Source: Vannielia litorea (GTDB lineage Bacteria > Pseudomonadota > Alphaproteobacteria > Rhodobacterales > Rhodobacteraceae). Taken from it: a stretch of DNA of 64,000 nt. The position numbers were made by a program, and so were the translations under genes. The stretch lies in contig NZ_FSRL01000001.1 of the NCBI RefSeq assembly GCF_900142295.1, forward strand, positions 1,922,001-1,986,000. The letters run 5' to 3'. A model generated the notes under the pieces. It saw only the letters and a list, made by a program, of their open reading frames with translations. It did no database searches and had not been told where the DNA came from. Below are positions 13,337 through 40,218 of this stretch, piece after piece. Numbering within the stretch: the stretch's first letter is position 1; each line of letters starts with the position of its first letter.

Positions 13337-13357
13337 CCGGCGCAGGATCGGGGGCGG

Positions 13358-15254: not shown

Positions 15255-16691
15255 ATGGCACAGATGACCGATCTGAAAACCGCGGGGGCGGACGAAACTC
15301 AGGCCAATGCGGGCTTCCGCAATCGCCTGAAACGCTTCGCGGACGAGAGCGAGGGCAGCTTCGTTGTCTTCTCGCTCTTCCTGCTGGTGTGCATGATGCT
15401 GGCCGTCGGGATCGCGGTTGATGTCATGCGCTTCGAGCTGACCCGCACCAAGCTCCAGAACACCCTCGACCGGGCGGTGCTCGCCGCGGCCGACATGGAC
15501 CAGACGCTCGAACCCGAGGCCGTGGTCGCCGACTACTTCGAGAAGGCCGGCCTGGGCAACTTCAACATCGACATCTCCGTCGACGAGGGCCTGAACTTCC
15601 GCAACGTCTCCGCCTCCACCGAGGCCGAGATCCGCACCCTGCTGATGAGCCTCGTGGGCATCAACAACTTCACCGCCCCCGCCTCCAGCACCGCCGAAGA
15701 GCGGGTGTCGAACGTGGAGATCAGCATGGTGCTCGACATCTCCGGTTCGATGGGCTCCAACGACAAGATCGAAAACCTCCGCGTCGCCGCCAGGGAGTTC
15801 ATCGACTCCGTGGTTGTCGATGACGCCGAGGGCCAGATCTCCCTGTCGCTGGTGCCCTACACCGCCCAGGTCAACGCCGGGCCCAACATCTTCAACCAGC
15901 TGAACAAAAGCAGCAACGGCCGGCACAACTACTCGCACTGCATCGACTTCGACTCGTCGGACTTCAACACCACGACCATCTCGATGACGAAGAGCTATCA
16001 GCAGATGCAGCACTTCGAGTGGTCCTCCGAGGACTACCGCCCGATCAGGAACCCAGGCTGCCCGATGCAGGACTACGAGCGCATCGTGCCCCTGAGCAAG
16101 AACACCACCGAGCTGAAGAACACGATCAACAACTACCGCGCCCGCGCCAACACCGCGATCCACCTCGGCATGAAGTGGGGCACCGCCCTGCTCGACCCCT
16201 CTATGCGCAACATCGTCAACACCCTTGAAGCCAGCGGCGTGGTGGATGACGAGTTCCGCGGCCGCCCGGCCGACTACGACGACGAGGAAACCCTCAAGGT
16301 CGTGGTGCTGATGACCGACGGCGAGAACGTCGATACCTACCGGATCCAGGACTGGGCCTACAACTCCAGCTCCGAGTACCAGCACTGGGACAACTACTCC
16401 CTCTGGTACTACCTCTACCGCTACGTGAACTCGCGCAACCGCGGCCAGTACTACTACCGCAAGTACTCCTCCGAGCAGGCCGACTCGATGCTCGACAACA
16501 TCTGCACCGCGGCCAAGACCGCCGGGATCACGGTGTTCACCATCGGCTTCGAGGTCACCAACTACTCCGCGGGCGTCATGCAGAACTGCGCCTCTTCGCC
16601 GTCGCACTTCTTCCGGGTGGAGGGCACCGAGATTTCCGAGGCTTTCTCCGCGATCGCCCGGCAGATCAACCAGCTGCGTCTGATCAACTGA
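15255..16691 (+). CDS. TadG-like pilus protein with vWA domain (copy 3, diverged)
   Basis: 478 aa from ATG 15255. Same plan as copies 1 and 2: leader, membrane helix near residues 36-56, FELTRTKLQNTLDRAVLAAA, then a vWA domain with the canonical MIDAS sequence MVLDISGSMG (Ser where copies 1 and 2 have Thr). It shares NYSHCIDFD and VVVLMTDGENVDTYR. A Tyr-rich insert lies around residues 385-415. It ends INQLRLIN. Its stop overlaps the next ATG (TGATG at 16689-16693), so it is co-translated with the TadE-like gene, whereas copies 1 and 2 stand alone. This may be the ancestral member of the family. Confidence 0.87.
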   Translation: MAQMTDLKTAGADETQANAGFRNRLKRFADESEGSFVVFSLFLLVCMMLAVGIAVDVMRFELTRTKLQNTLDRAVLAAADMDQTLEPEAVVADYFEKAGLGNFNIDISVDEGLNFRNVSASTEAEIRTLLMSLVGINNFTAPASSTAEERVSNVEISMVLDISGSMGSNDKIENLRVAAREFIDSVVVDDAEGQISLSLVPYTAQVNAGPNIFNQLNKSSNGRHNYSHCIDFDSSDFNTTTISMTKSYQQMQHFEWSSEDYRPIRNPGCPMQDYERIVPLSKNTTELKNTINNYRARANTAIHLGMKWGTALLDPSMRNIVNTLEASGVVDDEFRGRPADYDDEETLKVVVLMTDGENVDTYRIQDWAYNSSSEYQHWDNYSLWYYLYRYVNSRNRGQYYYRKYSSEQADSMLDNICTAAKTAGITVFTIGFEVTNYSAGVMQNCASSPSHFFRVEGTEISEAFSAIARQINQLRLIN

Positions 16692-17278
16692 TGGGGAGCC
16701 CCGAGATGCACGCAGACAGATTCAAAGGGGGGCGGCTGGCACGGCTGGCCGCCCGTCTCCGGCGCTACCGCTCCCGCGAGGACGGCAACGCCACCATCGA
16801 GTTCGTCATCCTCTTTCCGGTCTTCATCATCCTGTTCCTCTCCTGCTTCGAGGTCGGCATGCTGATGACCCGCCAGGTGATGCTGGAGCGTGCGCTCGAT
16901 CTTTCGGTCCGCGGCCTGCGCCTCGGCCACTGGTCGCCGCCCACCCACCAGGAACTCAAGGAGAGCATCTGCGAGCGTGCCGGGATCATCCCCGACTGCA
17001 TGAACTCGCTCCTGATCGAGCTCCAGCCGGTCTCCAAGTCCACCTGGACCCCGCTGCCCGACCAGGCCACCTGCAGCGACAAGTCCGCGCCGGTGCAGCC
17101 GGTCACCACCTTCCATGGCGGCACCGAGAACGAGATGATGCTGGTGCGCGCCTGCGCCGTGATGAAGCCCTTCTTCCGGTCCACCGCCTACGGCATGCGC
17201 CTGCCGCTGATCGACGGCGAGAACTACGCGCTGGTGTCGACCTCGGCTTTCGTCAACGAACCTGGCGCAGGGAGCTGA
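16691..17278 (+). CDS. TadE-like pseudopilin/minor pilin
   Basis: 195 aa from ATG 16691, overlapping the previous stop; an ATG at 16706 (MHADRF) is an alternative start. A basic leader is followed by YRSREDGNATIEFVILFPVF, the TadE motif: a Gly-Asn/Ala-Thr-Ile-Glu-Phe helix start with the conserved Glu at position 5 of the hydrophobic segment (about residues 38-60). The rest is a periplasmic domain with several Cys residues that may form disulfides. TadE-type proteins are processed by TadV-like prepilin peptidases and join Flp pilus assembly at the inner membrane. The next gene starts 4 nt after its stop. Confidence 0.85.
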   Translation: MGSPEMHADRFKGGRLARLAARLRRYRSREDGNATIEFVILFPVFIILFLSCFEVGMLMTRQVMLERALDLSVRGLRLGHWSPPTHQELKESICERAGIIPDCMNSLLIELQPVSKSTWTPLPDQATCSDKSAPVQPVTTFHGGTENEMMLVRACAVMKPFFRSTAYGMRLPLIDGENYALVSTSAFVNEPGAGS

Positions 17279-28031: not shown

Positions 28032-28106
28032 GCCCCGTTCGTCTATCGGTTAGGACGCCAGGTTTTCAACCTGGAAAGAGGGGTTCGATTCCCCTACGGG
28101 GTACCA
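28032..28106 (+). tRNA. tRNA-Glu (anticodon TTC)
   Basis: 75 nt including encoded CCA. Acceptor GCCCCGT pairs with ACGGGGT (first pair G-T); D-arm has GGTTAGGAC; anticodon stem CCAGG/CCTGG with loop TTTTCAA gives anticodon TTC; T-arm AGGGG-TTCGATT-CCCCT; discriminator A, then CCA. Its 3' part (from 28090) is the attachment core of the element integrated downstream, which leaves a complete tRNA. Confidence 0.97.
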
Positions 28107-28110
28107 GCCG
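28090..28110 (+). repeat. attL core
   Basis: 21 bp starting TCCCCTACGGGG and ending ACCAGCCG. It spans the 3' T-arm/acceptor half of tRNA-Glu, the CCA and 4 bases beyond. It is identical to 40198-40218 at the far end of the element. Confidence 0.93.
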
Positions 28111-28151
28111 ATTTTTTGTGCCCATGTTTTCAGGCACTTAAAGGCCAAGAT

Positions 28152-28193
28152 TGTCCCACCGGTTAAAACCCGACCGAAAAGTGGGACACTTTT
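28152..28193. repeat. Left-end inverted repeats, possible integrase arm or excisionase sites
   Basis: TGTCCCAC (28152-28159) and GTGGGACACTTTT (28181-28193) are inverted copies of one motif. The second also forms a local palindrome AAAAGTG-GGA-CACTTTT. The same motif, again as an inverted pair, occurs just inside attR (40105-40117 and 40152-40160). It is placed between attL and the integrase stop. Confidence 0.65.
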
Positions 28194-28196
28194 GGA

Positions 28197-29261
28197 CTAC
28201 TTACGTTCTCCCCCCATCTTGGTCAGAGCGGCCTCCGCGCGGACCTTTTGACTGGCGGCTTTCGTGTACCGCGTCACCTCTTTCGAGGTCTGGTGTCCGG
28301 TGATCGCCATGATCTCAAACTCGCTGCATCCAAGCTCGGCCAGTCGAGCGGCCGCGGCCTTCCTCAAACCATGCACAGAACAGTGCGGAAGCCCGGCTTC
28401 ATCGCACCATTTTCGGAAGCGGTTGCCGAAACCGGCGTTGGTGTAGGACCGCCCGTAACCGTTCACCAGAAAGGTCATGTCGCCGGTCGTCGTGGCGGCG
28501 ATGATCCGCTGCAACTCGGGCACCACGGGGATCTCCAGGCGGACCGGGTTGCGGCCCTTTCCCTTTTGCTGCGTGAAGGTCAACCACCCGCCGCGGAGGT
28601 GCTGCTTGCCCAGTAGTACGAGGTCGGAACGGCGCTGCCCGGTGTAGAGCGCGAGGGCCAGCGCCAGCCGGGCAGTCGTGCCAACCGGGTGTTTTTTCTC
28701 ATACGTCTCGATTTCCTCTATCGTCCACGAATGGAAGCCTTCGGGGTTGGAGCGCAGAAATTCCACATCCTTTGCCGGGTTGGCGTCGGCCAGATCATAG
28801 GTCACACCGAAACGGTAAAGCTGGCGGAGCGCCTTCACCATGCTATTGGCAGCCTCGGGCCGGTCGGCCAGCGCATCGCGGCGGGCGCGGATATGGCGGG
28901 GGAGTAGTAGCGCGAAGGGCTTGTCTCCGTCGCCCTTGTTCTCGCAGAACCGCTCCAGGATCGACCGGCGGACTTTCTGTGTCCGAGGGTCGAGTTCCCG
29001 AAACATCGAGGATTTGTAGTACTGAACGCAAAGCCATTTCACGCTGCGTGGCACCACGCTGCCCGGACTCGAGGACCGCTGTTTGGGGGCCTTCGGGCCT
29101 TCCGCTGCCCGGCGGTAGTCGGTCAGAAATTCAGGCGAGCCCAGGGGGCCGCGCAGCCGGACTTTCTGCCCGTGGCGGCGGTAGTAAAGGCGGACGGTCC
29201 CGTGGCGGTCGGTATCCTCCACCACGTATTTCAATCGCATCTTCATAGAGTCCTCGGGCAT
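28197..29261 (-). CDS. int: Tyrosine site-specific recombinase (integrase)
   Basis: 354 aa. Catalyses integration and excision at the tRNA-Glu att core. The N-terminal part (1-90) is basic with an arm-binding-like beta region (HGTVRLYYRRHGQKVRLRG). A SAM-like core-binding domain covers about 85-170. The catalytic domain has Arg I in LYTGQRRSDLV, the HxxR box HGLRKAAAARL, GHQTSKEV, and the nucleophile Tyr in TRYTKAA. It starts immediately after the stop of the AlpA-like gene with no gap, so it is last in the leftward transcript. Its stop lies 87 bp from attL, the usual position. Confidence 0.95.
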   Translation of the reverse strand: MPEDSMKMRLKYVVEDTDRHGTVRLYYRRHGQKVRLRGPLGSPEFLTDYRRAAEGPKAPKQRSSSPGSVVPRSVKWLCVQYYKSSMFRELDPRTQKVRRSILERFCENKGDGDKPFALLLPRHIRARRDALADRPEAANSMVKALRQLYRFGVTYDLADANPAKDVEFLRSNPEGFHSWTIEEIETYEKKHPVGTTARLALALALYTGQRRSDLVLLGKQHLRGGWLTFTQQKGKGRNPVRLEIPVVPELQRIIAATTTGDMTFLVNGYGRSYTNAGFGNRFRKWCDEAGLPHCSVHGLRKAAAARLAELGCSEFEIMAITGHQTSKEVTRYTKAASQKVRAEAALTKMGGERK

Positions 29262-29516
29262 CTATTCGTCCCAAGGATTGTGGTCTGAGTCGTCACCACC
29301 GGGCAAGGCGTCGAAAAATCTGTCCAGAGAACGCACGTCCCAGACGCGCCGCCCGTCGATTTTCTTGGGTTTGGGCATCCGGCCATCCGTGACCAGCGCG
29401 TCGAATTTGGAGGCCCCGACACCGATGTAGGCCGCCGCCTCCACTCGCGACAGGCCGCGCCGCGTGGGCGGCGGCAGAAGGTCGCGGTGGGACGTGGAGG
29501 CGGCGGCTAGGGTCAC
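29262..29516 (-). CDS. AlpA/excisionase-like helix-turn-helix protein
   Basis: 84 aa. Residues 20-70 form a MerR/AlpA-type winged helix: GLSRVEAAAYIGVGASKFD, LVTDGRMPKPKKI, then GRRVWDVRSLDRFF. AlpA-like proteins activate or assist excision of satellites and prophages and often adjoin int. It directly precedes int (0-nt gap) and starts 4 nt after the DUF2190 gene. It is probably the recombination directionality factor or element activator. Confidence 0.85.
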   Translation of the reverse strand: MTLAAASTSHRDLLPPPTRRGLSRVEAAAYIGVGASKFDALVTDGRMPKPKKIDGRRVWDVRSLDRFFDALPGGDDSDHNPWDE

Positions 29517-29520
29517 TGGT

Positions 29521-29844
29521 TTAAACGCTCAGTCGAACCCGGGCAGTGCCCGAAGGGTTGCCCGCCGCTGCGACGGCATGGCCGATGAAGGTGTTATCAG
29601 TGGCCGTCACGGTCACTTCGCCTTCGGTGGCATCCCAATAGACGGCAGCACCCACGGTCACGACATCGGTGCTGGCCTTCGGAAGCTCGAAGACTCCCAG
29701 CGTCTGGATGGTCACATCTTCACCAGAGGCAGCATCGCCGGAGGCTACGCCAAAGAGGGCGCCGACCAGGACACCCTCCCCGGACGCCACGGCAGCCGGG
29801 GCGGCAACGGTGATTGCCTCGCCCTTTTGCACAAAGTTCTTCAT
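29521..29844 (-). CDS. DUF2190 family phage protein (capsid-associated)
   Basis: 107 aa from ATG 29844 with GGGACC-type spacing after the gpW-like stop; longer frames overlap that gene. Starts MKNFVQKGEAITVAAPAA and continues GVLVGALFGVASGDA, VGAAVYWDATEGEVT and FIGHAVAAAGNPSGTARVRL, the DUF2190 pattern. DUF2190 proteins are small beta proteins found beside major capsid genes of lambda- and Mu-like phages, probably capsid decoration or stabilisation. Here it ends the head gene module. Confidence 0.88.
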   Translation of the reverse strand: MKNFVQKGEAITVAAPAAVASGEGVLVGALFGVASGDAASGEDVTIQTLGVFELPKASTDVVTVGAAVYWDATEGEVTVTATDNTFIGHAVAAAGNPSGTARVRLSV

Positions 29845-29845
29845 T

Positions 29846-30076
29846 TCAGGTCCCTTTCGAGGTCTGGAAGGTGATGGTTGCCGGGCGGGATTGCCCGGCA
29901 ACCTGCCGTTCGAGGTCGGCAATATAGGCGGCGAGACGGGGTGCGGAGGCTCGGGTGTATTCGATCCGCTCGCCGTTCTGATCGACGTAGACCAGGGCGG
30001 CCTCACCGATCATGAGGCGGTGATAGGCGGCCCGTGCCTCCGCAAGCTGTTCAGCCGTGGTCGCCGTGGTCGCCAT
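29846..30076 (-). CDS. gpW-like head-tail connector protein
   Basis: 76 aa from ATG 30076, overlapping the capsid gene stop by one base (TGATG). It is helical with AEARAAYHRLMIGEAALVYV and TRASAPRLAAYIADLERQV, the size and helix-strand-helix layout of lambda gpW/Phage_head_tail families. gpW closes the portal after packaging and provides the interface for tails. Retention of a connector but no tail gene in this element is what a tail-hijacking satellite needs. Confidence 0.8.
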   Translation of the reverse strand: MATTATTAEQLAEARAAYHRLMIGEAALVYVDQNGERIEYTRASAPRLAAYIADLERQVAGQSRPATITFQTSKGT

Positions 30077-31986
30077 CAGGCGGCGCCCTCGTTGAAGTAG
30101 GCCCCGCGCCAGTCGAGCCATCCGGCACCGAAGTCGAGGAATGCCCGATACTTCATGCCGAGGGTGTCCCATGCTTCCGTCCGCTGAATCTGGACACCTT
30201 GCGCGGCGGAAAGGTATCCGAACTGGAGCGCCGGCAGTCGGGCCGGATCAGCGAAGATGAACCACCGATCATCGGTGATGCGAGGCTCCACCAGGAGCGT
30301 CAGCTTGCCTGTGAAGGGATTCACATCGTCCACGGACGCCGCATAGATCGACGCCAACAGCGACTCTGCAGCCGTCTCCAATTCCGGCCCGACCAGAAGG
30401 TATTTGGGCTTGGAGTTGATGAGAGTCTTCCCGTCGAGCCCTTTGAAGCCCCGCATCGCTTTGCGGGCCAGGTCCAGCGTGGTAACGGAGGGGTCGGCTC
30501 CGGTATCGGCGAGGTTGCCCCGGGTGCTGTGGAAGACGGCGGTGCCGTCCGACAGGCTCGGATTGCTGGTGAGCAGGTCCACCAGAATGTCGGCCTCGGT
30601 CTGCGCGGCGGCCTCGCCAAAGGCGGCGGTCATGTCGCCCAGAAGGCCCAGATCGTCGTCGATCAGAAGTTGCCGGGATACGGTGAGACCACGCGCATAG
30701 GTCTTGAGGCGCATGGTCTCGCCGTTCTCGGCGCGGCTGGTGTGGGTGATTTCGCCGTGTTCGTCGATCTCCTCCAAGCGGCCCATCTCGCCAAGCCGGA
30801 TCGAGGTCGACTCCTTGAAGTTGGAAAGCGTGCGCTGGCGGCACAGGCTCTTGAGGGGCGACTCGGCTGCCTTGTAGGTGTCCAGGGCAACCTTGTTCAT
30901 GGCGTTGGAAACCACCAGGGGGAAATCGCTGGTGCCGTGGGCGGCCCGCTGGAACGTCTCATCGGCGGACATGCCCCGATGCGACACGCCAGCCCGGGAA
31001 AGAGCCGAGCGGGCCAAGTCGAGCATCGAGTCGCCCAGATATTGGCGAGACACTTCCGGGCATTCGCCACCGGCCATACGCGTTGCCACGGCGTCCGCTT
31101 GGCGCCGCGTGATGACCGCCGGATCGTCGTTCTGGGGCGCGGTCGTGCGAATGACCGGCGTGGAGCGGGTCTGCATGTGATCGAAGATCGCGGCCTTGGC
31201 GGCGTCCACCGTGGCCTCTTGGTCGATCAGATCGTCAGCGATTTCCGCGCCGAGGCCAGCCGAGCGGACCAGGGTGCGGATCTCGGACCGGCGGGTGCGC
31301 TCGGCATCCTCCGGCGGGGTTACGGTTTGGGTGTTGGGCATGGTGCCTCCTGTCGCGGCGCGGTTACTAGGGTTACCGCCCAGCCGCGCCGTTGCGCTGG
31401 GGGCTGTTTCGGAGCGGACTCGCGCGGCCCTGTCAGCCGGGTCCGGGGTCAAGCTGATCTCTCGAAGGGTCCAAGATGCGGGGCGGCGAACACGTTGGCC
31501 GTTCTCGTGCGTTTCACGCCACGCGGCGACCGCGTAACCGATGCTCACCCCTGTCAGGGTGCCTTCGGCGACCCGTTCAACAATGGGAGCGGCGTCTTCG
31601 GCTGCGGACAGGCGCAGAGTGGCCAAGAGCTTGTCGCCGTCCACCCGAAGGCTCTGAACAATCCCAACCACATCACGGGCGCTCGCACCCCGATGGGAGT
31701 CATAGACCGGCAGATCAGTCACCGCGGAGAGGTCCAGCGTGGCCATGTCCAACGTCTCGGCGTAGGCCACGCCGCGCGCATCCTTGCGCATCACCGGGGC
31801 CTGGGTGGCCGCGATCACCTCAACCGTCATCGTGTCGGGGTCCCAGGTCGTGGGTGCTGTCGTTGCAGCCCGGGTGACGTGGGTGGCGTCGGCCCACAGG
31901 TCAGGCGGGTTCGCGTGACTATCGTCAAAGATCGCTGCGGGCGGACCGTAGGTTTTGACGCTGGTGGCATACCGATCGAGGCTCAT
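30076..31986 (-). CDS. Prohead protease-major capsid protein fusion
   Basis: 636 aa from ATG 31986, which overlaps the portal stop (ATGA). Residues about 55-200 are a caudovirus prohead protease (S78-like): catalytic His in LPVYDSHRG and Ser in LTGVSIGYAV. After a Pro/Arg-rich linker and a helical delta-like region (about 230-330), residues 330-636 form an HK97-type major capsid protein with RLGEMGRLEEIDEHGE, RLKTYARGLTVSRQLL and KYLLVGPELE. In many phages these are two genes. The fusion would couple maturation to assembly, with the protease acting as N-terminal scaffold to be cut off. Confidence 0.9.
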   Translation of the reverse strand: MSLDRYATSVKTYGPPAAIFDDSHANPPDLWADATHVTRAATTAPTTWDPDTMTVEVIAATQAPVMRKDARGVAYAETLDMATLDLSAVTDLPVYDSHRGASARDVVGIVQSLRVDGDKLLATLRLSAAEDAAPIVERVAEGTLTGVSIGYAVAAWRETHENGQRVRRPASWTLREISLTPDPADRAARVRSETAPSATARLGGNPSNRAATGGTMPNTQTVTPPEDAERTRRSEIRTLVRSAGLGAEIADDLIDQEATVDAAKAAIFDHMQTRSTPVIRTTAPQNDDPAVITRRQADAVATRMAGGECPEVSRQYLGDSMLDLARSALSRAGVSHRGMSADETFQRAAHGTSDFPLVVSNAMNKVALDTYKAAESPLKSLCRQRTLSNFKESTSIRLGEMGRLEEIDEHGEITHTSRAENGETMRLKTYARGLTVSRQLLIDDDLGLLGDMTAAFGEAAAQTEADILVDLLTSNPSLSDGTAVFHSTRGNLADTGADPSVTTLDLARKAMRGFKGLDGKTLINSKPKYLLVGPELETAAESLLASIYAASVDDVNPFTGKLTLLVEPRITDDRWFIFADPARLPALQFGYLSAAQGVQIQRTEAWDTLGMKYRAFLDFGAGWLDWRGAYFNEGAA

Positions 31987-33365
31987 TCGACAAACTCCTT
32001 TTCGGGGTTGGAGAAGTTCAGGCCAAGGGCGGCCTCGCGTTCCCGGTCTGCTGCGATCTCGGCGTCGAGGTCGGCGATGTTCCAGCCAAGGCTTGCTACG
32101 GCTTGGCGGCGCGAGGTCAGCCCGGCACCAAGCATTTCCTTGAGGGCGGCCACATCCTTTGCCGGGTCTACTTGCATCGGGCGGGGCGCCAGCCATTCGG
32201 CTTTGAGTGCGGGCTCCAGATCGGCAACGTCCAGCCGCCCCGAGATGTATTCGTGGGCGATGACCCTGCGGAACGCGGGGGCGAGAAACTGCGGGACCAA
32301 GGCGTGATACTGGAATTGCTCCACCTTCGCGCGAAAAGGCAGAAGCCCAGCCCGCAGGCTCGAATAGTTCGCGCCGCTCAGATCGCCGTCCAAGAGGTGC
32401 TGAGGGACACCTAGGCCAGCGGCAATCTGCCCAAGGGTCAGCTTGGCGAAGGCAATGGAGTCCTTGGCTTCGGTGGGCGAATTGAACTTGATGTCTGTGC
32501 CTGCGGGAAGGACCCGAACCACGCCGGGCTCTAAGCTGAGGTCCGCCAGTCCATCGGCGTCGGGGAAGGCACCGCCACCGTTCAGGTTGTTTTGGTCGGT
32601 GACGAACCCGGCGTGCATCGCGGCAATCTTCGCACCGACCAGGAGCGCGTCTTGCAGTTGGTCGAACTCGTTGACCGTCAAGAGGATTGGGGCCAGCCAC
32701 GAGACCCCGCGCACCTGTCCGGCACCAAGGGGCTTGAAGATGTGGAGCATGTCTTCGGCGGGCACGCGCACAGGCTGCCCGGCGGTCGGGAATAGCTCGG
32801 TCGGGCGATGCGGCTGGACATGATAGGCCACACGGCGGCCCAATTGGTCGAACTCCACACCCGCCGCGATGTAGCCGCCATTACCGAGGTCCCGAGTGAT
32901 CGACTCGTCCACCATTTCTGCCGGGATAAGGCGAAGCCGGACGCCTTCGGGCCCTTCCTCAATCATGGCGAAGGCTTCGCCATCCACGATCACAGCTTCC
33001 ACCACTGCGGCGGTCATGCCCCGAAAATCAGTCCGACCCTCGGCGTCAATCTCGGCGGCCCGGGCATTGAAGTGCGAGTCGATTACCGGGCGGAGGTCGG
33101 TGTCGGGGTGACTCGAGTTTGCTTCGATACCTGCCCCCACTGTCTCCGCCACCCATGCACCTACGGCGTTCCTCAGGTAGCCGTTGTTGGCGTAGGCATG
33201 GCGAGCCCTAGCGCGGATCGGTGCGGCAGCGGCGATGGTCTCAGCACCGACCGGCCCGGACGCACGGAACCCATGTGCCCGGCGTCCGCCAGTTTCTGCA
33301 TCGAAGCTACGGCGGATCGGTGCGGGGGCGGCTTGGCGGCGAAAGATGCGGTCAATGAGGCTCAT
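31983..33365 (-). CDS. Phage portal protein, lambda family
   Basis: 460 aa from ATG 33365 (MSLIDRIFRR), overlapping the upstream gene by 4 bp; upstream frames are not phage-like. Forms the dodecameric ring at one capsid vertex through which DNA is packaged. It shows lambda gpB-family features: ARARHAYANNGYLRNAVGAWV near the N-terminus, FRGMTAAVVEAVIVDGEAFAM (shown in part), EDMLHIFKPLGAGQVRGVSWL, and TLGQIAAGLGVPQHLLDGDLSGANYSS. Length is near the family norm (about 500). It is the first structural gene after two small proteins. Confidence 0.93.
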   Translation of the reverse strand: MSLIDRIFRRQAAPAPIRRSFDAETGGRRAHGFRASGPVGAETIAAAAPIRARARHAYANNGYLRNAVGAWVAETVGAGIEANSSHPDTDLRPVIDSHFNARAAEIDAEGRTDFRGMTAAVVEAVIVDGEAFAMIEEGPEGVRLRLIPAEMVDESITRDLGNGGYIAAGVEFDQLGRRVAYHVQPHRPTELFPTAGQPVRVPAEDMLHIFKPLGAGQVRGVSWLAPILLTVNEFDQLQDALLVGAKIAAMHAGFVTDQNNLNGGGAFPDADGLADLSLEPGVVRVLPAGTDIKFNSPTEAKDSIAFAKLTLGQIAAGLGVPQHLLDGDLSGANYSSLRAGLLPFRAKVEQFQYHALVPQFLAPAFRRVIAHEYISGRLDVADLEPALKAEWLAPRPMQVDPAKDVAALKEMLGAGLTSRRQAVASLGWNIADLDAEIAADREREAALGLNFSNPEKEFVE

Positions 33366-33895
33366 TGGTCGTCGGGCTCCAGACAATGCAGGAAGGGGCA
33401 CAGGGTGGCCGAGATGGGCCACCGCGCGACAAAGGCGGTGTGAACATTGCCAAGCGCCGGGCGGCCCCGTGTCTCGGGCTCATAAGGCGACCAGTCGGGC
33501 AATGTGATCGGGCGGCACCAGGCAGCCCGGATACCCGCTCGCACGGGTTGCCCAGGCGCGATGATGTGAACGAAGGCCAGCGCCAGGTCGAAATCCTCGC
33601 CCTCACGGATTGCGGCCAGAGTTTCCGGCAGCGCCGCAACGTGGAAGCCCGGGCGTATCTCCATCGCGGGGCCACGCTCCACGCCATAGTCGCGCAGGAC
33701 TTGGAGACAACAGGCAAACGCCGCTTCGCCAAGTTCTAGGCGACGGGGTCTGCCCGCCCCCGGTGTCGCTGCATGGCCGAGAAGTCCAGTTTGGGCGGCG
33801 CCCTTCACCCGGGCGAATATAGCGTCGGCAGCCGGACCACTTTGGCCGAATGAAGCCGCGATTGCATCTGAGATTTGGCGGACTGTGAAACTCAT
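33362..33895 (-). CDS. Element protein with N-terminal winged-helix-like region
   Basis: 177 aa from ATG 33895, overlapping both neighbours by 4 bp (ATGA). Residues 1-65 (VRQISDAIAASF, IFARVKGAAQTGLLG, GRPRRLELGEAAFAC) look like a winged helix that reads DNA, as in MerR-like or packaging-control proteins. The remainder, with FHVAALPETLAAIREGEDFD and a Cys/Trp-rich end, is not recognised. It might regulate the head operon or redirect helper functions; this is inference from position between the operon start and the portal gene. Confidence 0.6.
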   Translation of the reverse strand: MSFTVRQISDAIAASFGQSGPAADAIFARVKGAAQTGLLGHAATPGAGRPRRLELGEAAFACCLQVLRDYGVERGPAMEIRPGFHVAALPETLAAIREGEDFDLALAFVHIIAPGQPVRAGIRAAWCRPITLPDWSPYEPETRGRPALGNVHTAFVARWPISATLCPFLHCLEPDDQ

Positions 33896-34161
33896 GCGAA
33901 TTTTCCCAGAGGACTCCCGGGAATTTTGAAGCGCATGATCCATCCGGGAATTTCCCGATATTCCGGCACATCTGAGTCTCGAAGGCGGCCATTCGTCATA
34001 AAGGCGAACCAGTCTTTTGGAATGCCATAGCCGAGTTGCCGAAATGCCCTTTCAAGGATGCCGTGCAGCACCTCGGGGCGTTCATTCGCGTAGGCGGCAG
34101 TGATAGCTCTCGCGAGATCAAGTGGCGTCATAGACTTTATTTTTCTCTCAATCTCGCTCAT
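33892..34161 (-). CDS. Small element protein of unknown function
   Basis: 89 aa from ATG 34161 (MSEIERKIKSMTPLDLARAI) with an AGGGAGTGAC-type ribosome site just upstream. Helical N-terminal half, then LGYGIPKDWFAFMTNGRL and GWIMRFKIPGSPLGKF. Unrecognised family. First gene of the leftward head operon, divergent from the cargo gene region. Confidence 0.6.
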   Translation of the reverse strand: MSEIERKIKSMTPLDLARAITAAYANERPEVLHGILERAFRQLGYGIPKDWFAFMTNGRLRDSDVPEYREIPGWIMRFKIPGSPLGKFA

Positions 34162-34535
34162 GTCACTCCCTCTCTGGTGTGGTTGGTCGGCGGGGTGGAC
34201 CTCACCCCTGAAATCTTCCCCCGCCGACCGGCGTGCTGAAAGGACACCCCAGAAATATATCATCGGCATTTAGGATGCCGCGAGTAATTTGTTTGTCTCA
34301 TATCGTCTCAGCGAACCCAAAACCGAGGAAATAATTTTATGTTGGGGCAATATGGTCCCATCTGCGTTCCGGGATTCACTCTCCGTGTGAAACTAAATGA
34401 ATCAAATCCCGAGGTTGAAGGGCAAGGTGCGAATCGGAGCCCCCTAATCTTCCCTCTGAGTCAAAGTGCGTTTTGGCCTTCTCGCCATGAAACGTTCTGC
34501 GGAAATCTAAGAAGTGCGGACGCTGGAAGATTCTG
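34162..34535. other. Divergent control region inside the satellite
   Basis: 374 bp, visibly richer in A/T than the rest of the element. It must carry the promoter of the leftward head operon and that of the forward cargo gene. A 65-codon forward frame (34339-34536) ends in TGATG overlapping the cargo ATG. It could be a leader peptide, but its composition gives no support. Confidence 0.5.
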
Positions 34536-35378
34536 ATGGAAACCTCCGCCAAACTTCGGCAGCCTCAGCATGACCTAAGCTGGACTAGGGGTAGAAAGTT
34601 GGACCGTCGAACAGAGAGATTTTTTGAAGCATATGATGACTGCGCTCGACGCGTAATATATGCAAGAAGCGAAGACTTCACTAGATACCTGAGGATGTGG
34701 TTCGCTTGCTTTGATGACGCGCCACTCTTGATCCTGAATGAAGTGAACCGGTTGCAGAGCCTCTCCGATTGGGAGGACGTGGAGAAAAACGTAGTGCGGG
34801 AGCCTGGGAGCTTTGTTGGTTCGGGCGAATTGAACTGGCCAGATAGGTCGGAAGATCGCCTAAGCAATCAACTGGCGACCTTGAGGGAGCTAGCGAACGG
34901 AAACCTGGTTCCTCACGACTTCGCCTTCAACTACTTTTATTCTGGCGACAACAACATTGATCGCACTGTTCAGGAGATGGCCGCCAACCTGTTCGAGCCT
35001 CACGCAGAGGAACTGCGGCGCCGGTTATACAATCTAGCCGAAGATGCAGCCGAGTTGGCTGAGGCCGCTCCAGCTTCAGACAGAATGGTTGCTTTGGATC
35101 ACAACTCTGCGCAGTTCACCCAGGCGATTGAGAGATTGGGTGAAGTCCAAGTGAAACTCCGAGAAAACAATCAAATTGACCCGGATGACAAAGCAAGAAT
35201 TCAGGTTGAAATTGTGTCTGGAATCGAAATCCTCAAGGCTCCCAAAACTCGCGTTGAAGCCGCAAAGGTGATGCTGTTGGGGGCCTTGGGATGGTTGGCG
35301 CTGGAGTTCGCCTCTTCCGGGCTTGGTATGGCTGCGGAAGCGGCATATCGGGCTGTTTCAACGCTGTTGGGGTTCTAA
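34536..35378 (+). CDS. Lower-GC cargo gene, unknown; candidate defence or superinfection function
   Basis: 280 aa, the only forward-strand gene in the element, inserted between the head operon and terL. Residues 1-235 are soluble and helical, with YDDCARRVIYARSEDFTRYLR (in part), a FNYFYSGDNNIDRTVQEM region and an acidic helix; no motif of known enzymes is seen. Residues about 240-278 hold one or two hydrophobic segments (VMLLGALGWLALEFASS). Codon use and GC are clearly lower than in flanking genes, which marks a recent, independent acquisition. Position and soluble-sensor plus membrane-tail layout resemble accessory anti-phage genes of satellites, but this is a hypothesis. Confidence 0.65.
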   Translation: METSAKLRQPQHDLSWTRGRKLDRRTERFFEAYDDCARRVIYARSEDFTRYLRMWFACFDDAPLLILNEVNRLQSLSDWEDVEKNVVREPGSFVGSGELNWPDRSEDRLSNQLATLRELANGNLVPHDFAFNYFYSGDNNIDRTVQEMAANLFEPHAEELRRRLYNLAEDAAELAEAAPASDRMVALDHNSAQFTQAIERLGEVQVKLRENNQIDPDDKARIQVEIVSGIEILKAPKTRVEAAKVMLLGALGWLALEFASSGLGMAAEAAYRAVSTLLGF

Positions 35379-35397
35379 GTAGTTGCCTCCTGACGGG

Positions 35398-37170
35398 CTA
35401 GCCCGAGAGCCACTTTGAGCGGACTACGTTCTGTCTGGAAGTTGCGTTGGGGCGGCGGCTGGAAAGTTCGGCTTCCCTGACCTCCAAGTTCACGCCGACC
35501 AGATTGCGGACCGCAAGCGCATAGACGACGCAATCGAGCGACTCGGCGCGGCGGCCCGGAATCCTTTCCCAAGAGGCTGACGGGGCACCACGCCTGTAGC
35601 GAACCACGCGACGTTCGCTTGCAAGCTCCTCAAAGAACCTTCCCTCCAGCGTGTTGGAGAACCGGACCGAAGTGCCGCGTTTCAGTCGCTCGGTTAGGTT
35701 GGCCTTTATTCCGTCCACCCCGACAATGAAAAGGCGCTGCCCCTTGGTCGCGCTTGCCCGGATTGCAGGGCGGTTTCCTTCGGCCCCTTTGATCGCCACC
35801 ACGCGGCGAGACAGCCTTGCGTGACAGAAGGCCAGCACCCGGTCCATCGTGGCGCCGTCTGAGGCGTCCACGGCGGTCGCGTCGATCCGCAGCAACCCGC
35901 CCGCCGGGTGGGCATGGTGGGCCGCCAGATAGCCGTCCAGTTCGCTCCAGGGGGCTTCGTCGTCGTTTACCCTGCCCCAGAATACCTGTTGATCCACGAT
36001 GAAGGTTTCGGACCGCCCGTGCGCCAGGGTGACGGCCTCCAGCCGGTCATGCTGGACATCCACGCCGCAGGTCAGAATAAGCGTCTCGGATGGGAGTGCC
36101 TCAAGGCTGAAGTTCTCGGCGCGACTGGCGAGCGCCGTGTCGTCCAGTTCGTCGCCCGTCGAGCGCCAGCCTTCCGCCATCAGGGTATTGGTCCACGATT
36201 GGAGAAGGTCAGGGTGTTCCTTTGCCACCAGGAACTCTTGCGCGATCTTTCCCCACGCGGCAGCGGGCAGAGTCGAAACCAACACATTGGTTCGGAAACC
36301 GGCATGGCCTTTGACCTCGGGACGGGTGATCCGCCAGCGCCCATGCTCGACCATCTCGGCCTTGCGGTCCTCCGGCTGAACGACGCCGCACTCGGGGCAT
36401 ATATAGGCTGCGTCTTCCGGCTTGCCGTCCGGCCATTGAATGTCGGCCCATGTTGGCGCGTGGAAGGCGCCACAGTCCGGGCATCGGATCTCATAGACCC
36501 GCTGATCGCTTTGCCGGTAGAGACGGAGAATATGGCTTGTGTCCTCCCAGGTCGGTGTTGAGCCCGCCACCAGCTTGCGGTCGGGAAAGCTGATAGTGCG
36601 CCGCTCCGCCAGGGTGATCGGGCTGCCCTCTGTCCCGGATTCCATCGCGTCGATTTCGTCCAGGAGAAGGACGCGGGCGTTGTGACGGCGGAGGTTGCGC
36701 GGTGACTTGGCCGATACGATTTTGAGAGAGCCGCCAGGAAAACGGCGGGACATTAGCGTAGATCTGCCAGAGGGGTCGGCATCGAGCGACAGGAGGCCTC
36801 TTAGATCGGGGCTGGCGGCAAAAATCGGCTCCACATCGTCCACCATCCAGCCCCGGCAATCGGACTCAGTCGGCAGAACGCTCAGGATAGGTGAAGGGTC
36901 GTTTTGGCAATAGTAACCCACCACGGCGGAAAGTAGGGAGGTGTAGCCTAGCCGTACCGGCTTGACCACAGACACGCGCTCAATGGACGGGTCACCCATC
37001 GCTTCGGCGATGCCGCGTTGAACAGGCGTGAGGGCCATTGGGCCGGATTGCGCGGACACATCGGACGGCAGCCGGACATTGGCCTCAATCCAGTCGGGGA
37101 GGTCTAGCTTCTTGGGCGGGCGGAGAGCGGCATAGGTCTCGGCGCGGATTTCTGAAAGTCGTTCAGTCAT
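35398..37170 (-). CDS. terL: Phage terminase large subunit, GpA family
   Basis: 590 aa. The ATP-driven packaging motor and nuclease. N-terminal ATPase: deviant Walker A in VVKPVRLGYTSLLS and Walker B ARVLLLDEIDAM. A zinc ribbon with CPDC and CPEC lies in the middle (about 230-260). The nuclease domain has TCGVDVQHDRLEA, DATAVDASDGATMD and ESLDCVVYALAV with the metal-binding Asp residues. The start overlaps the terS stop by 8 bp. It is convergent with the cargo gene (19 bp between stops). Length is close to lambda gpA (641). Confidence 0.95.
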   Translation of the reverse strand: MTERLSEIRAETYAALRPPKKLDLPDWIEANVRLPSDVSAQSGPMALTPVQRGIAEAMGDPSIERVSVVKPVRLGYTSLLSAVVGYYCQNDPSPILSVLPTESDCRGWMVDDVEPIFAASPDLRGLLSLDADPSGRSTLMSRRFPGGSLKIVSAKSPRNLRRHNARVLLLDEIDAMESGTEGSPITLAERRTISFPDRKLVAGSTPTWEDTSHILRLYRQSDQRVYEIRCPDCGAFHAPTWADIQWPDGKPEDAAYICPECGVVQPEDRKAEMVEHGRWRITRPEVKGHAGFRTNVLVSTLPAAAWGKIAQEFLVAKEHPDLLQSWTNTLMAEGWRSTGDELDDTALASRAENFSLEALPSETLILTCGVDVQHDRLEAVTLAHGRSETFIVDQQVFWGRVNDDEAPWSELDGYLAAHHAHPAGGLLRIDATAVDASDGATMDRVLAFCHARLSRRVVAIKGAEGNRPAIRASATKGQRLFIVGVDGIKANLTERLKRGTSVRFSNTLEGRFFEELASERRVVRYRRGAPSASWERIPGRRAESLDCVVYALAVRNLVGVNLEVREAELSSRRPNATSRQNVVRSKWLSG

Positions 37171-37684
37171 TGGCTTCTGTCTCCGCTAGGTCGGACATTG
37201 CCCGTCTCAGTTCGATGTCGAGCGCGGCTGCGGCGGGCCGATTAAGCCCCACGGTGGCGGCCACGCGAGCGGGCACAGCTAGAAGTCGTGCGCGGAGGTC
37301 GGCTGCCACAGAAAGCCATTCGGCCCGCACGGCAGTTGCGTCGAGCAAGTCGCCTCGGGCCCGGGCGTTTTGAAGGGCAATCTTGTCCGCTTGTTCTGCG
37401 GCCAGACGCTTTTTGTGGTCGGCCAGTTCGGGGTCAGCCGTTCGCGACCTTGCTGCGGCCCTTGTGTGTTCGCAGTAGGCGCGGACGCTCGCCCGGAGAG
37501 GGAACTTGTGGCCCTTGAGGCCGGTGGTCTCTCGGGGGAGGACGCCATCGCGGGCAAGCTGGTTCAACCGCCCCGTGGACAGGCCAAGCCATTCGGCCAG
37601 TTCCGCCGATGTCACCAGTTCGCCGTCGCTCGGGGGCTCGGCATCCGGGGACATATCCAGAAGGTCTTCGATCTCAGCTTCCAT
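37163..37684 (-). CDS. terS: Terminase small subunit, Nu1-like
   Basis: 173 aa. Residues 22-70 are a MerR/Nu1-type winged helix: VTSAELAEWLGLSTGRLNQL, then GVLPRETTGLKGHKFPLRAS. This is followed by a long coiled-coil-like helix (HKKRLAAEQADKIALQNARA) and a C-terminal domain that would contact TerL. TerS recognises the packaging (cos or pac) site of its own genome. A satellite-encoded TerS/TerL pair means that the element can package its own DNA. First gene of the terS-terL pair, downstream of the repeat-rich region. Confidence 0.88.
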   Translation of the reverse strand: MEAEIEDLLDMSPDAEPPSDGELVTSAELAEWLGLSTGRLNQLARDGVLPRETTGLKGHKFPLRASVRAYCEHTRAAARSRTADPELADHKKRLAAEQADKIALQNARARGDLLDATAVRAEWLSVAADLRARLLAVPARVAATVGLNRPAAAALDIELRRAMSDLAETEAND

Positions 37685-37839
37685 GGCTCTGCCTCACTTT
37701 TCTCGTTTTCATTGAACCGGGGATTTCAACATTCGCGAGATTGCAGCGGGTCTGTTTCCGCGCTCCGCGCCCCCCGCGGCTTCCAATCCCCCAGAGGGAC
37801 CCTTTCCACTCGGTTGTGACTGTCTGCCCTTCTTCACAT

Positions 37840-37995
37840 CTGCCGTGAAAGTGGTGGTCCGGGGCATCGGAGCGGACCGGACAGCCGGACACCCCTAAAG
37901 GGGTGTGTCCGGTCCGTCCGGGTCTCCGACTCGCTTTGCCCCCCCGGACAGCCCGGACTTGTCCGGGTTTGGTCCGGTCCGTCCGGTTACTCGTC
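37840..37995. repeat. GTCCGG iteron-like cluster, candidate replication origin (or cos/pac site)
   Basis: About ten copies of GTCCGG/CCGGAC in both orientations lie between the replication gene stop (37987) and terS. They include a long near-perfect hairpin GGACACCCCT-AA-AGGGGTGTGTCC (37897-37920). Copies recur at short intervals (for example GGTCCGGTCCGTCCGG at 37971-37986). Satellites of the PICI class carry their origin as repeats next to the primase/rep gene, so an ori is the first guess. A TerS-binding packaging site is the alternative because terS is next. Confidence 0.6.
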
Positions 37996-39990
37996 GGCAT
38001 GGTCGGCCTCGTCTTCTTCAAGGTCGTCAAACCAATCGTCGCCACCGATTTGCGTCAGGCGAATGTGCCCGTCCGAAATGGTGACGTGCTCCTTGTCTGC
38101 CAGGCGGCCCAGGATACGCCGCGCCGCCCTCCGCCGGTTGTCCGCGTCTTCCGCCGTGGTGACTCTCAGTTCGTCTGGCGATGCAGCCCGGGCCAACCAT
38201 TCGTCACGGCTGACGCTCTCGCCTTCCCCCACCATCTCCATGATGAGGCCCAGCGCCGCCGCTTCGGTTGGTTTGAGCCGTGGCGTTGATCCGCCAGGCG
38301 CAGGGTCGCACGGGTCGCAAAGCGCCGTTGTGATCGGGTCGCCGTCTTCATCGGTGCCGATTTCTTCACCCCGAATGCGGAACGCCAAGTCACCGTCGCA
38401 AGAGCCGTTGCGGTTCTTGGTGAGTCGACCAGTGACTACCCCGGACTCGCCTTTGCGAAGGTGGATCGAAACATCGAGGGCACCGTTCAATAGGCTGTGG
38501 CCTCGGGGCAAGCCCTGTTGCCCGTCCTTTGTGTCGTGGTGGACCAGGATGACGGCGGCGCCCCATTTGGTCAGCGCCCGGGCAACGGCCACCACCCGGC
38601 CCATGCCTTCGGCGGAGTTTTCTTCGAGTCCCGGGAAGGCCATTGCCAGGGTGTCAATCACGATTAGCGTTGGGCGCTTCTCCTTCACTGCCTTGGCCAG
38701 CGTTCTGACCTGGGCGGCCCATTTTGCGCCCGCCTCCGGGTTGAGTAGATCGGACACCCCGCCAACCAAGGTGAAGTTGGGCGCGTCCCCATGCTCTGCC
38801 TTGAGGGCGGTGACCCGCCCCCGCATCCCGTGTTCATCCTCCGCGGCGACGTAGAAGACGCCACCGGCCTTTGTCCGGCGCCCGTGAGCCTCGCGACCTT
38901 GCGCCACGGCGTAGCCAAGAGCCGGAGCCAAGACTGACTTGCCCACGCCCGGGGCACCCACAATGCAGCCCACGTCGCGCTTCGCGATCAGTCCCTTGAT
39001 GACATAGGGCCGCGGGTTTGAGGCGGCGCAGTCTGCGGGCGAAAGGAAGGTCAGCCCATCTTTGGCGGCTGGTTTCTCGGGGGTCATGTCGAGCAAGGCT
39101 GCGATCTCATCTGACGGCGCTTCGACCTCATCAGGCAGATCGTCAAAGTCGTCGGCGTCCACCCCCTGCCAGCCGTGCCGCTTAGCTTCGGCGAAAAGGG
39201 AGTCTGCGGTGACCAGGAGGCCGTCCGCCTTCCCGAAAGACCGCCACTTTTCCCGCACCTCGGCGTGCGAAAACCCAGGGTGCCCGGCTGACCAGCCCAA
39301 CGCGAGCGCGAGCCCGTCCGGCGATCCGGCGGAGCCGTGGTGGAGCGCCATCAGCGTCGATACCCATTCGTCGTAGGAGCCGTTATTGGGGATGAAGCGG
39401 AGGGCATCCCGAAGCTCGGCGATGTCGTGCCCGCCCGCAGGGGCGGAGGGTTCATCAGCGGGGCGAGCACGGCGCCTTAAGGCGGATGGGAATGGGGACA
39501 GCCCCAGAAGCCGAGCAGCGCCCAGGCTGCCCCGCTCACAGCGATATTCGCCTGACCGACTAACCGCGCCCGGGGCGATCACATAGCCGCCCTCGCCGCG
39601 CACGTCGAGGCCTTCGGCGGACGCAGAATTGGTCACGCCTTCGACATGCTCGAAGAACAGGTGAAGCCCGCCGCCGCCGGTCCGCACAACCAGGTCGGCG
39701 TCTCCAGGGGTGATGCCGATTGCCCGCGCAGCGGCAAGCCCATCCTTGCCTTTGCCCACGTCGAGATCCACGACGCTCAAGCCGTTGGCCTCGCCGGTCG
39801 GCAGACCCGGCATGGCGTCCGGCCATTTGGACCACCAGCGGGCAACCTTGACGGGATCGTCGGTGGCCTTGTCCCGCCACCTCACCAGGGGCCGCTTGGT
39901 GGCCGGGTCGCAAGGAAAAATCTTGAAGCCGTCCCGGGCCAGTTTCCGCGCGGTTTCGGGGTTCTGCGTTCGCGTTCTTGCCTGTTCCAT
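37987..39990 (-). CDS. Primase-polymerase/RepA-like helicase replication protein
   Basis: 667 aa from ATG 39990 with a strong GGAGGT ribosome site 8 nt upstream. Residues about 10-170 are a Prim-Pol domain: SVVDLDVGKGKDGL supplies the metal-binding Asp pair and LVVRTGGGGLHLFFEH the conserved His. A primase C-terminal-like region follows (about 190-270). Residues about 315-520 are a RecA-fold helicase (AAA_25/RepA type) with Walker A GAPGVGKS, Walker B TLIVIDTLAMAF and VILVHHDTKDG. The C-terminus is an acidic tail after a winged helix. It primes and unwinds satellite DNA at the nearby repeats. First gene of the leftward transcript, 207 bp inside attR. Confidence 0.93.
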   Translation of the reverse strand: MEQARTRTQNPETARKLARDGFKIFPCDPATKRPLVRWRDKATDDPVKVARWWSKWPDAMPGLPTGEANGLSVVDLDVGKGKDGLAAARAIGITPGDADLVVRTGGGGLHLFFEHVEGVTNSASAEGLDVRGEGGYVIAPGAVSRSGEYRCERGSLGAARLLGLSPFPSALRRRARPADEPSAPAGGHDIAELRDALRFIPNNGSYDEWVSTLMALHHGSAGSPDGLALALGWSAGHPGFSHAEVREKWRSFGKADGLLVTADSLFAEAKRHGWQGVDADDFDDLPDEVEAPSDEIAALLDMTPEKPAAKDGLTFLSPADCAASNPRPYVIKGLIAKRDVGCIVGAPGVGKSVLAPALGYAVAQGREAHGRRTKAGGVFYVAAEDEHGMRGRVTALKAEHGDAPNFTLVGGVSDLLNPEAGAKWAAQVRTLAKAVKEKRPTLIVIDTLAMAFPGLEENSAEGMGRVVAVARALTKWGAAVILVHHDTKDGQQGLPRGHSLLNGALDVSIHLRKGESGVVTGRLTKNRNGSCDGDLAFRIRGEEIGTDEDGDPITTALCDPCDPAPGGSTPRLKPTEAAALGLIMEMVGEGESVSRDEWLARAASPDELRVTTAEDADNRRRAARRILGRLADKEHVTISDGHIRLTQIGGDDWFDDLEEDEADHADE

Positions 39991-40104
39991 GTTAGGTTAC
40001 CTCCAAAGGTGTTGTGGCCCTTTTCTTCGTCCCCGGCCCTCGGTCTGTCGCGCAGGCCGAGGGCTTCTTTTTGGTTGGATTCTGAGAGCTAGATGCACAA
40101 GCCG

Positions 40105-40160
40105 GTGGGACACTTTTCCCAAAAAACCTAATAAAATCATGGGAAAACAGAGTGTCCCAC
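40105..40160. repeat. Right-end inverted repeats matching the left end
   Basis: GTGGGACACTTTT (40105-40117) and GTGTCCCAC (40152-40160) form an inverted pair just inside attR. They are the same motif as at 28152-28193. They flank an A/T-rich stretch. Likely integrase arm-type or Xis-binding sites. Confidence 0.65.
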
Positions 40161-40197
40161 TTTTTCTTAAGTCTTTGAGTTCAAACGGTTATTGGAC

Positions 40198-40218
40198 TCC
40201 CCTACGGGGTACCAGCCG
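40198..40218 (+). repeat. attR core
   Basis: Identical 21-bp copy of attL. The stop codon (TAG) of the M50 peptidase gene, read on the reverse strand, lies inside the core at 40204-40202. In the empty chromosome this gene therefore overlapped the 3' end of tRNA-Glu antisense. Confidence 0.93.

What the first reader, a model, noticed from the sequence alone, without database searches (positions are those of the whole stretch)
28090..40218. A 12.1-kb capsid-forming phage satellite (cf-PICI-like) in an alphaproteobacterial tRNA-Glu gene
Seen: precise 21-bp att repeats, integrase and AlpA-like HTH at one end, Prim-Pol/helicase at the other, and a full lambda-like head and packaging set (terS, terL, portal, protease-capsid, gpW-like, DUF2190), all intact and mostly overlapping. 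No tail, lysis or repressor genes. Known: capsid-forming PICIs carry this set and use helper tails. Inference: this is a satellite lineage that packages itself in its own capsid and depends on a resident or infecting tailed phage. Its gene order (head genes next to int/alpA) and host group may represent an undescribed branch.
Basis: partly seen in the sequence, partly recalled or inferred. Interest (0 to 1): 0.92.

Follow-up and report, generated by a model that had tools for sequence, protein, structure and literature searches.

The report
Phage satellite carrying its own head
This 12-kb mobile element encodes its own virus head and DNA-packing motor but no tail, so it very probably borrows tails from another phage, and it belongs to a widespread family in alphaproteobacteria that looks separate from the known head-making satellites.

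Summary
Confirmed and extended. Window 28090-40218 is a 12.1-kb element between exact 21-bp repeats at tRNA-Glu; the site is empty in 5 of 5 other same-genus genomes holding the flanking M50B gene. Head and packaging genes are intact; no tail or lysis family matched. A sibling sits in tRNA-Trp of the same genome. Of 53 loci with a capsid match, 23 have accepted repeats: units of 9.9-13.7 kb sharing one gene order. Tailed cousins carry tail genes after the cement gene; these units do not. The 28 type-I TerLs form one clade (100/100, 103). New: a lambda-type cos 90 bp before terS (nick 37775/37774), present in 19 of 23 units against 1.5% of random stretches. An ORF beside the portal gene folds like the MerR-type regulator CvkR, so 'no repressor' is doubtful. 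It works like a capsid-forming PICI but differs in capsid family, gene order and apparent origin. Packaging, helper and tail use are inferred; no particle or circle was seen. A relative with a similar capsid does carry tail genes. Novelty is provisional: the founding cf-PICI papers were not readable.

The parts
28032..28106 (+). tRNA-Glu (anticodon ttc), integration site, intact
   Evidence: ARAGORN
28090..28110 (.). att repeat, tRNA side (21 bp)
   Evidence: exact match to 40198-40218; one copy in each of five empty sites
28197..29261 (-). tyrosine integrase
   Evidence: PF00589 4.2e-15; phrog_1 1.1e-37
29262..29516 (-). AlpA/excisionase-like HTH protein
   Evidence: phrog_25900 2e-14, phrog_66 7.9e-6, HTH_17 0.0072 under cut-off
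29521..29844 (-). head cement/decoration protein (DUF2190)
   Evidence: PF09956 5.8e-30; boundaries
29846..30076 (-). gpW-like head-completion protein (Ad1)
   Evidence: PF02831 2.1e-15, phrog_75 4.4e-21; boundaries
30076..31986 (-). prohead protease / major capsid fusion
   Evidence: phrog_4523 6.5e-164, PF25209 1.4e-49, NF045541 669 bits; boundaries
31983..33365 (-). portal protein, lambda family
   Evidence: PF05136 9.2e-82; boundaries
33362..33943 (-). p200 (193 aa; start uncertain): fast-evolving protein with MerR/CvkR-like fold, candidate regulator
34536..35378 (+). cargo gene, 280 aa, helical, opposite strand, no known family
   Evidence: no family over cut-off in Pfam, none in PHROGs or PADLOC; homologues; model pLDDT 86.3, no PDB match at E <= 0.001
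35398..37170 (-). terminase large subunit, GpA type
   Evidence: PF05876 1.3e-82, PF20454 9.6e-73
37163..37684 (-). terminase small subunit
   Evidence: phrog_57 3.5e-21
37764..37802 (-). predicted cos: cosQ-like 37802-37793, nick between 37775 and 37774, 5' overhang 37774-37764 if 11 nt long
   Evidence: compared with lambda ends and RcKemmy ends
37987..39990 (-). Prim-Pol / PriCT_2 / AAA_25 replication protein
   Evidence: PF09250 1.1e-28, PriCT_2 1e-13, PF13481 4.1e-32
40198..40218 (.). att repeat, distal side

Best explanation
An integrated, probably functional phage satellite. When a tailed helper phage infects or is induced, control by the MerR-like p200 and/or the AlpA-like protein changes (inferred). 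Integrase excises the element at the tRNA-Glu att site (sites shown, act inferred). The Prim-Pol/helicase replicates it (inferred from domains). Its own portal, protease-capsid fusion and cement proteins build a head, and its own TerS/TerL cut at its own lambda-type cos upstream of terS and pack unit-length 12.1-kb DNA, or a cos-skipping dimer or trimer if the shell is phage-sized (site shown by sequence, act inferred). Head completion stops at gpW; tail, head-tail attachment protein and lysis come from the helper (inferred from their absence). It is one of a lineage spread over Alphaproteobacteria.
For: Repeats and empty sites. Head/packaging set with open frames. 23 of 53 loci with accepted repeats, 9.85-13.67 kb apart (median 11.78), with the order prim or other replication gene-terS-terL-cargo-ORF beside portal-portal-capsid-gpW-cement-(alpA)-int where the genes could be called. 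No tail family among 47 cargo ORFs of 22 elements (one 'virion structural protein') nor among the 25 of 48 families shown for 42 other ORFs, while the same PHROGs search on 19 ORFs of five tailed cousins finds tail terminator, minor tail and tape measure. Seven queries from the tail region of RcKemmy and prophages: 1 hit in 23 elements (head-tail attachment-like ORF in L085), 0 in 80 IMG/VR loci, hits in each of L089-L093. TerL clade of 28 of 28 type-I rows at 100/100 (103). cos in 19 of 23 elements against 92 of 6309 random stretches. Two such elements in two tRNA genes of one genome.
Against: No induction, particle, circle or transfer data. None of 80 IMG/VR loci has an exact terminal repeat of 15-399 bp. 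No tailed prophage was found in this genome with the families tried; the only PF04860, PF03237 and PF06199 matches lie in one RcGTA-type cluster, so no resident helper is known. L222, inside the capsid clade at weak support (93/45), has tail genes; L079 has a 65-aa minor-tail match beside a fragmentary portal. 30 of 53 loci gave no accepted repeat, a number of them cut by contig ends; the 53 contain at least one duplicate (L036 is part of the contig of L055). The cos motif was found in the same 23 elements on which it was counted, and the window's cosQ has 2 mismatches.
Confidence: 0.84

Rival explanations
1. A canonical capsid-forming PICI that shares descent with the known Enterobacterial/Firmicute cf-PICIs and only colonised a new host class.
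For: Same logic: integrase, AlpA-like protein, replication gene, own head and terminase, no tail; 12 kb against an average of 14 kb quoted for cf-PICIs (PMC10803314). Gram-negative PICIs use AlpA or MerR regulators (PMC6092414 figure legend).
Against: No PF05065 capsid or HNH match at E <= 0.1, both present in the cf-PICI set described in PMC13230959. Two enterobacterial capsid-bearing elements that I fetched group with Escherichia phage LLS (100/100), apart from the alphaproteobacterial clade. The published cf-PICIs themselves were not compared.
Confidence: 0.08
2. A remnant of a tailed prophage that lost its tail and lysis genes by deletion.
For: Head genes are of phage kind; tailed cousins exist at about 27-37% capsid identity; one tail-bearing relative (L222) lies in the capsid clade (98, 99).
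Against: Precise att ends, no broken core genes, the same tail-less unit in 23 loci with accepted repeats, gpW after the capsid instead of before the portal as in RcKemmy, p200 and cargo between terL and portal, cos retained.
Confidence: 0.03
3. A host-domesticated particle maker (GTA-like or other) rather than a selfish satellite.
For: Intact structural genes kept without tails; the host also has an RcGTA-type cluster (91).
Against: Mobile: different tRNA sites, empty sites in the same genus, patchy distribution (82 of 295 family genomes with any capsid match, phages included), own integrase, replication gene and cos.
Confidence: 0.03

Closest known systems
Capsid-forming PICIs (cf-PICIs; Alqurainy et al. 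2023, recalled; paper not held)
   Same: int, AlpA-like regulator, replication gene, own terminase, portal, protease, capsid and connector; no tail or lysis; 10-15 kb
   Different: lambda-type GpA TerL, PF25209 protease-capsid fusion and gpW/DUF2190, where a described set has PF05065 and HNH (PMC13230959); one co-directional run from prim to int with alpA/int last; Alphaproteobacteria
cf-PISP satellite plasmids of Vibrio (PMC13230959, passages seen)
   Same: own head, tails thought to be taken from a helper
   Different: episomal, PF05065 capsid, a distinct tyrosine recombinase instead of the integrase
Rhodobacter capsulatus RcC phages (RcKemmy etc.; PMC8601537, passages seen)
   Same: GpA-type TerL, portal, protease-capsid fusion, gpW-like protein and a small protein after the capsid; cohesive ends whose sequence resembles the satellite cos
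   Different: about 41 kb complete siphoviruses, gpW before portal, head-tail attachment and tail genes after the capsid region; capsid 30% identical
P4-like satellites, PICIs, PICMIs, PLEs (partly recalled; PMC10803314 passages)
   Same: phage-dependent elements of similar size
   Different: not known to encode a whole head of their own, as this element does

Membership tests
capsid-forming PICI | integrase and att sites | tested here: met
capsid-forming PICI | AlpA- or MerR-type regulator | tested here: inconclusive
   AlpA-like HTH, weak in Pfam; MerR-like fold of p200; a shared fold shows no function
capsid-forming PICI | own terminase, portal, protease, capsid and connector | tested here: met
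capsid-forming PICI | no tail and no lysis genes | tested here: met
   no such family for the window; 62, 65 (25 of 48 families shown) and 96 for relatives
capsid-forming PICI | PF05065 capsid and HNH nuclease, as in the set described in PMC13230959 (whether all cf-PICIs have them was not seen) | tested here: not met
   no PF05065 or HNH match at E <= 0.1
capsid-forming PICI | common descent of core genes with known cf-PICIs | tested here: inconclusive
   two enterobacterial capsid-bearing elements fall elsewhere in the capsid trees; published cf-PICI sequences not compared
capsid-forming PICI | induced by a helper and packaged in own heads with helper tails | not testable with these tools
   needs induction and particle DNA
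lambda-type cos packaging | cosQ followed at about 28-30 nt by CG^GG upstream of terS, with GpA-type TerL | tested here: met
   by sequence only, the nick is not shown
complete tailed prophage | tail tube, tape measure and lysis genes within the att sites | tested here: not met
   control

The most novel reading that the evidence does not exclude
An independently evolved, class-wide lineage of tail-stealing satellites whose self-packed heads dock at gpW on foreign tails, which in hosts without a tailed prophage (as this genome appears to be, with the families tried) could include the tails of the host's own RcGTA, so that a selfish element would ride on a domesticated gene transfer agent.
Probability: 0.06. 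Interest if true: 0.95.

Novelty: new variant of a known kind. Interest (0 to 1): 0.73.

Why it matters
It would mean that carrying one's own head while stealing tails arose more than once, and that Alphaproteobacteria (named loci: Rhodobacteraceae, Sinorhizobium, Asticcacaulis, Novacetimonas, Aureimonas) hold a satellite family that is catalogued as small viruses in IMG/VR and may be missed by finders built on other capsid families (inference). Two elements in one genome, a base-level cos prediction, empty sites in sister species and a candidate regulator make induction, packaging and tail use directly testable.

Tried and rejected
Protein search with p200 gave no homologue at E <= 0.001 among 769 candidates, so it was aligned by place and weak similarity. 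The cargo protein found 8 proteins, one of them from the window's own contig, the rest unnamed or hypothetical; its model gave no PDB match at E <= 0.001 (122). PADLOC on 47 cargo ORFs (25 of 43 families shown): nothing for the window's cargo; Orf5, HEC-06, SspE and type IV restriction models each in one member, possibly the same one or two proteins; Pfam GmrSD in one (50). Viral structure library for p200: nothing at E <= 0.001 (59). Terminal repeats of IMG/VR loci: none in 80 (60). GTA as general tail donor: among tail-less carriers of the class draw, RcGTA-tape matches are strong in G000, G075 and G574, weak in G335, and none is listed for G359, so GTA is not needed everywhere.

Rows dropped or chosen: of 75 early/late ORFs, 33 that I took by position for primases, integrases or their antisense frames (not each verified; L058 and L063 have large frames there that the window's primase does not hit) were left out of the 42 searched. 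Five rows were left out between the capsid trees (L072, L078, L082, L091, L093); L063 was left out of both because its capsid lies in two frames; the trees use a selection of the loci. Where several ORFs stood beside the portal gene one was kept by hand as p200. The gene caller misses genes in several elements. The 23 accepted repeats include weak ones: L085 and L086 (13 bp), L055 (14 bp), L069 (15 bp, with a longer chance repeat); L088 is not at a tRNA, and in L056 the repeat is like tRNA-Cys but ARAGORN called no tRNA. Status of L226 and L229 is unclear: no hit of the seven tail queries, a weak distal-tail and a head-tail adaptor family in L226.

Literature: searches (117 for cosQ); listings and cited passages were seen, no whole paper. 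The cf-PICI founding paper and the SatelliteFinder paper are not held, so novelty is provisional. The seven-base lambda cosQ sequence is recalled; that GGGTCCT lies 30 nt before lambda's right end was checked. Labels of the seven tail-region queries are mine.
Full report
The observation. The element spans window 28090-40218. An exact 21-bp repeat lies at 28090-28110 and 40198-40218; the first copy overlaps the 3' end of an intact tRNA-Glu at 28032-28106. G+C is 62.7% against 67.9% and 67.6% in the rest of the window to the left and right. The M50B protein beside attR was matched in 7 of 31 genomes searched: this one, five of six other same-genus genomes and one of another genus. In all five same-genus ones recJ, tRNA-Glu, M50B and GGDEF lie together without an element, and the printed sites each show the 21-bp core once. 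The insertion is precise.

Gene content. From the right end, minus strand unless stated: Prim-Pol/PriCT_2/AAA_25; TerS (phrog_57); GpA-type TerL; a 280-aa cargo gene on the plus strand; p200; lambda-type portal; protease-capsid fusion; gpW; cement protein; AlpA-like HTH; integrase (boundaries). No gene matches a tail or lysis family.

It is one of many. The own genome holds a second unit at tRNA-Trp (L003), 45-bp repeats 12,482 bp apart, same order, capsid 61-64% identical; these two are the only PF05876 TerL places in the genome. A capsid search matched 82 of 295 family genomes, many with more distant capsids that include phages and prophages. A primase search of genome contigs gave 18 loci; L036-L041, L043-L046, L048 and L049 show the same run of genes or its visible part, the other six only the primase or a piece of it. 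Named hosts include Sediminimonas, Rhodobacter, Rhodovulum, Gemmobacter, Sinorhizobium, Asticcacaulis, Novacetimonas and Aureimonas. I searched 53 loci with a capsid match (window included) for repeats; 23 were accepted, spans 9,851-13,673 bp, median 11,782, in tRNA genes for Glu, Trp, Arg, Tyr, Val, Gly, Ser, Cys, Phe and Met. L036 and L055 come from one contig, so the 53 are not all independent. L054 sits in the same tRNA-Glu next to recJ as the window's element, with a diverged element (capsid 63%): the site was used twice or the element is old there.

Tails. In tailed cousins (L089-L093) a PHROGs search of 19 ORFs downstream of the cement gene finds tail terminator (4), minor tail (4) and tape measure (2). 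In the 23 elements, 47 ORFs of the terL-portal interval (22 elements; L048 gave none) matched no tail family in Pfam or PHROGs, one matched 'virion structural protein'; 42 further ORFs gave none among the 25 of 48 families shown. Seven tail-region queries from RcKemmy and prophages hit 1 of 23 elements (a head-tail attachment-like ORF between terS and terL of L085) and 0 of 80 IMG/VR loci; they hit each of L089-L093 and several loci, and once L079, a 65-aa minor-tail match beside a fragmentary portal. L079 is not among the 23.

Descent. In the 56-row capsid tree the 35 satellite rows are one side of a branch (100/95) with none of 16 tailed rows among them. Two ungrouped rows fall in that clade: the Rhodovastum plasmid L094 and L222. 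L222 carries a tape-measure and a minor tail protein beside its cement gene, so the capsid clade is not purely tail-less; its place is weak (93/45) and its TerL is a very long branch. In the 46-row TerL tree all 28 type-I rows, the window's included, form one clade (100/100) on a long stem; the five type-II rows group with L226 (100/99), whose status is unclear, so type II has a different packaging ancestry; all 33 satellite rows together against the tailed rows get only 68/93. In the capsid trees type I is not one clade: seven rows join type II. Two enterobacterial capsid-bearing elements (L095, L200) group with Escherichia phage LLS (100/100), which suggests a separate origin.

A different gene order. 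In RcKemmy gpW precedes the portal gene, and head-tail attachment and tail genes follow the capsid region. In the satellites gpW, where found, follows the capsid, cargo and the p200 place stand between terL and portal, and alpA/int or int follow the cement gene.

cos. Upstream of terS the elements share GGGTCCTTCC (12 of 23 exactly). Lambda's genome ends read GGGTCCT 30 nt before CG^GGGC; RcKemmy's ends, with an 11-base 5' overhang reported in PMC8601537 (passages), read AGGTTCTTCC 28 nt before CG^GGGG. A cosQ-like 10-mer with up to two mismatches and CG^GG 25-30 nt after its start is present in 19 of 23 elements, against 92 of 6309 random stretches on the same strand and 26 of 2300 on the other. 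In IMG/VR loci 28 of 47 have the 10-mer with at most one mismatch against 3.7% of random stretches; that set includes copies of elements already used, the window's and its sibling's among them. In the window the site is 37802-37764, predicted nick 37775/37774, 90 bp before terS. PMC4669245 (passages) calls cosQ essential for recognising and nicking the downstream cos at termination and the CG pairs at the nicks highly conserved.

Helper. PF04860, PF03237 and PF06199 each give one place in the own genome, all in C1 about 1.250-1.264 Mb, an RcGTA-type cluster by the RcGTA_tape and GTA megatron models; PF10145 gave none. Other tail and terminase families were not tried. A resident tailed helper is thus not known; an infecting phage is the simplest donor. 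GTA tails are a bold alternative, weakened by a tail-less carrier (G359) with no RcGTA-tape match. In the class draw 14 of 385 genomes had a capsid match at E <= 1e-60, and several of these are tail-bearing prophages.

IMG/VR. 322 relatives were confirmed and 80 kept; 79 of these contigs are at most 17.2 kb, one is 31.9 kb. The window's element and, by its cos region, its sibling are there as UViG_2698536701_000003 and _000001: catalogued as viral; whether anyone has called them satellites was not seen.

Known or new. PMC10803314 lists the main cf-PICI hosts without Alphaproteobacteria and an average of 14 kb (passages). PMC13230959 describes a cf-PICI set with PF05065 capsid and HNH gene (passages); neither is met here. 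So it works like a cf-PICI but is not filed as one. Searches listed no paper that I recognised as describing such a family in Alphaproteobacteria; the founding papers could not be read.

Noticed in passing
L096 (Paracoccus pNSM5TCa) 290-17272: A second, type-II unit of about 16.9 kb with 47-bp tRNA-Met repeats, integrase at the other end, DNA methyltransferase and HNH genes between terL and portal, no tail gene annotated.
   Followed up: partly
L095 (E. coli, 10.8 kb circular) and L200 (Klebsiella aerogenes, 10.5 kb circular): Plasmid records with int, AlpA, primase-type gene, protease-capsid fusion and DUF1441 (TerS-like, recalled) but no TerL or portal annotated (gene tables may be incomplete): perhaps excised satellites that use a helper's motor.
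   Followed up: partly
L094 (Rhodovastum plasmid RHOAph, 10.7 kb): Protease-capsid fusion with ParA, Phd/RelE and DUF3987 genes and no annotated portal or terminase: possible episomal satellite.
   Followed up: partly
L085 12751-13074: One satellite carries a head-tail attachment-like ORF between terS and terL (32% to RcKemmy, 46.6 bits; PHROGs gives phrog_7787, unknown function).
   Followed up: partly
L222 (G618:C6:1-16000): Relative with a satellite-clade capsid but a tape-measure and minor tail gene directly after the cement gene; possible link between phages and satellites.
   Followed up: partly
L218 (G000:C1:1248000-1267999): RcGTA-type gene transfer agent cluster, the only other portal/terminase/major-tail place found in this genome with the families tried.
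   Followed up: partly
L103, L134, L136: IMG/VR contigs in which primase and/or terminase genes lie on the opposite strand from the head genes.
   Followed up: no
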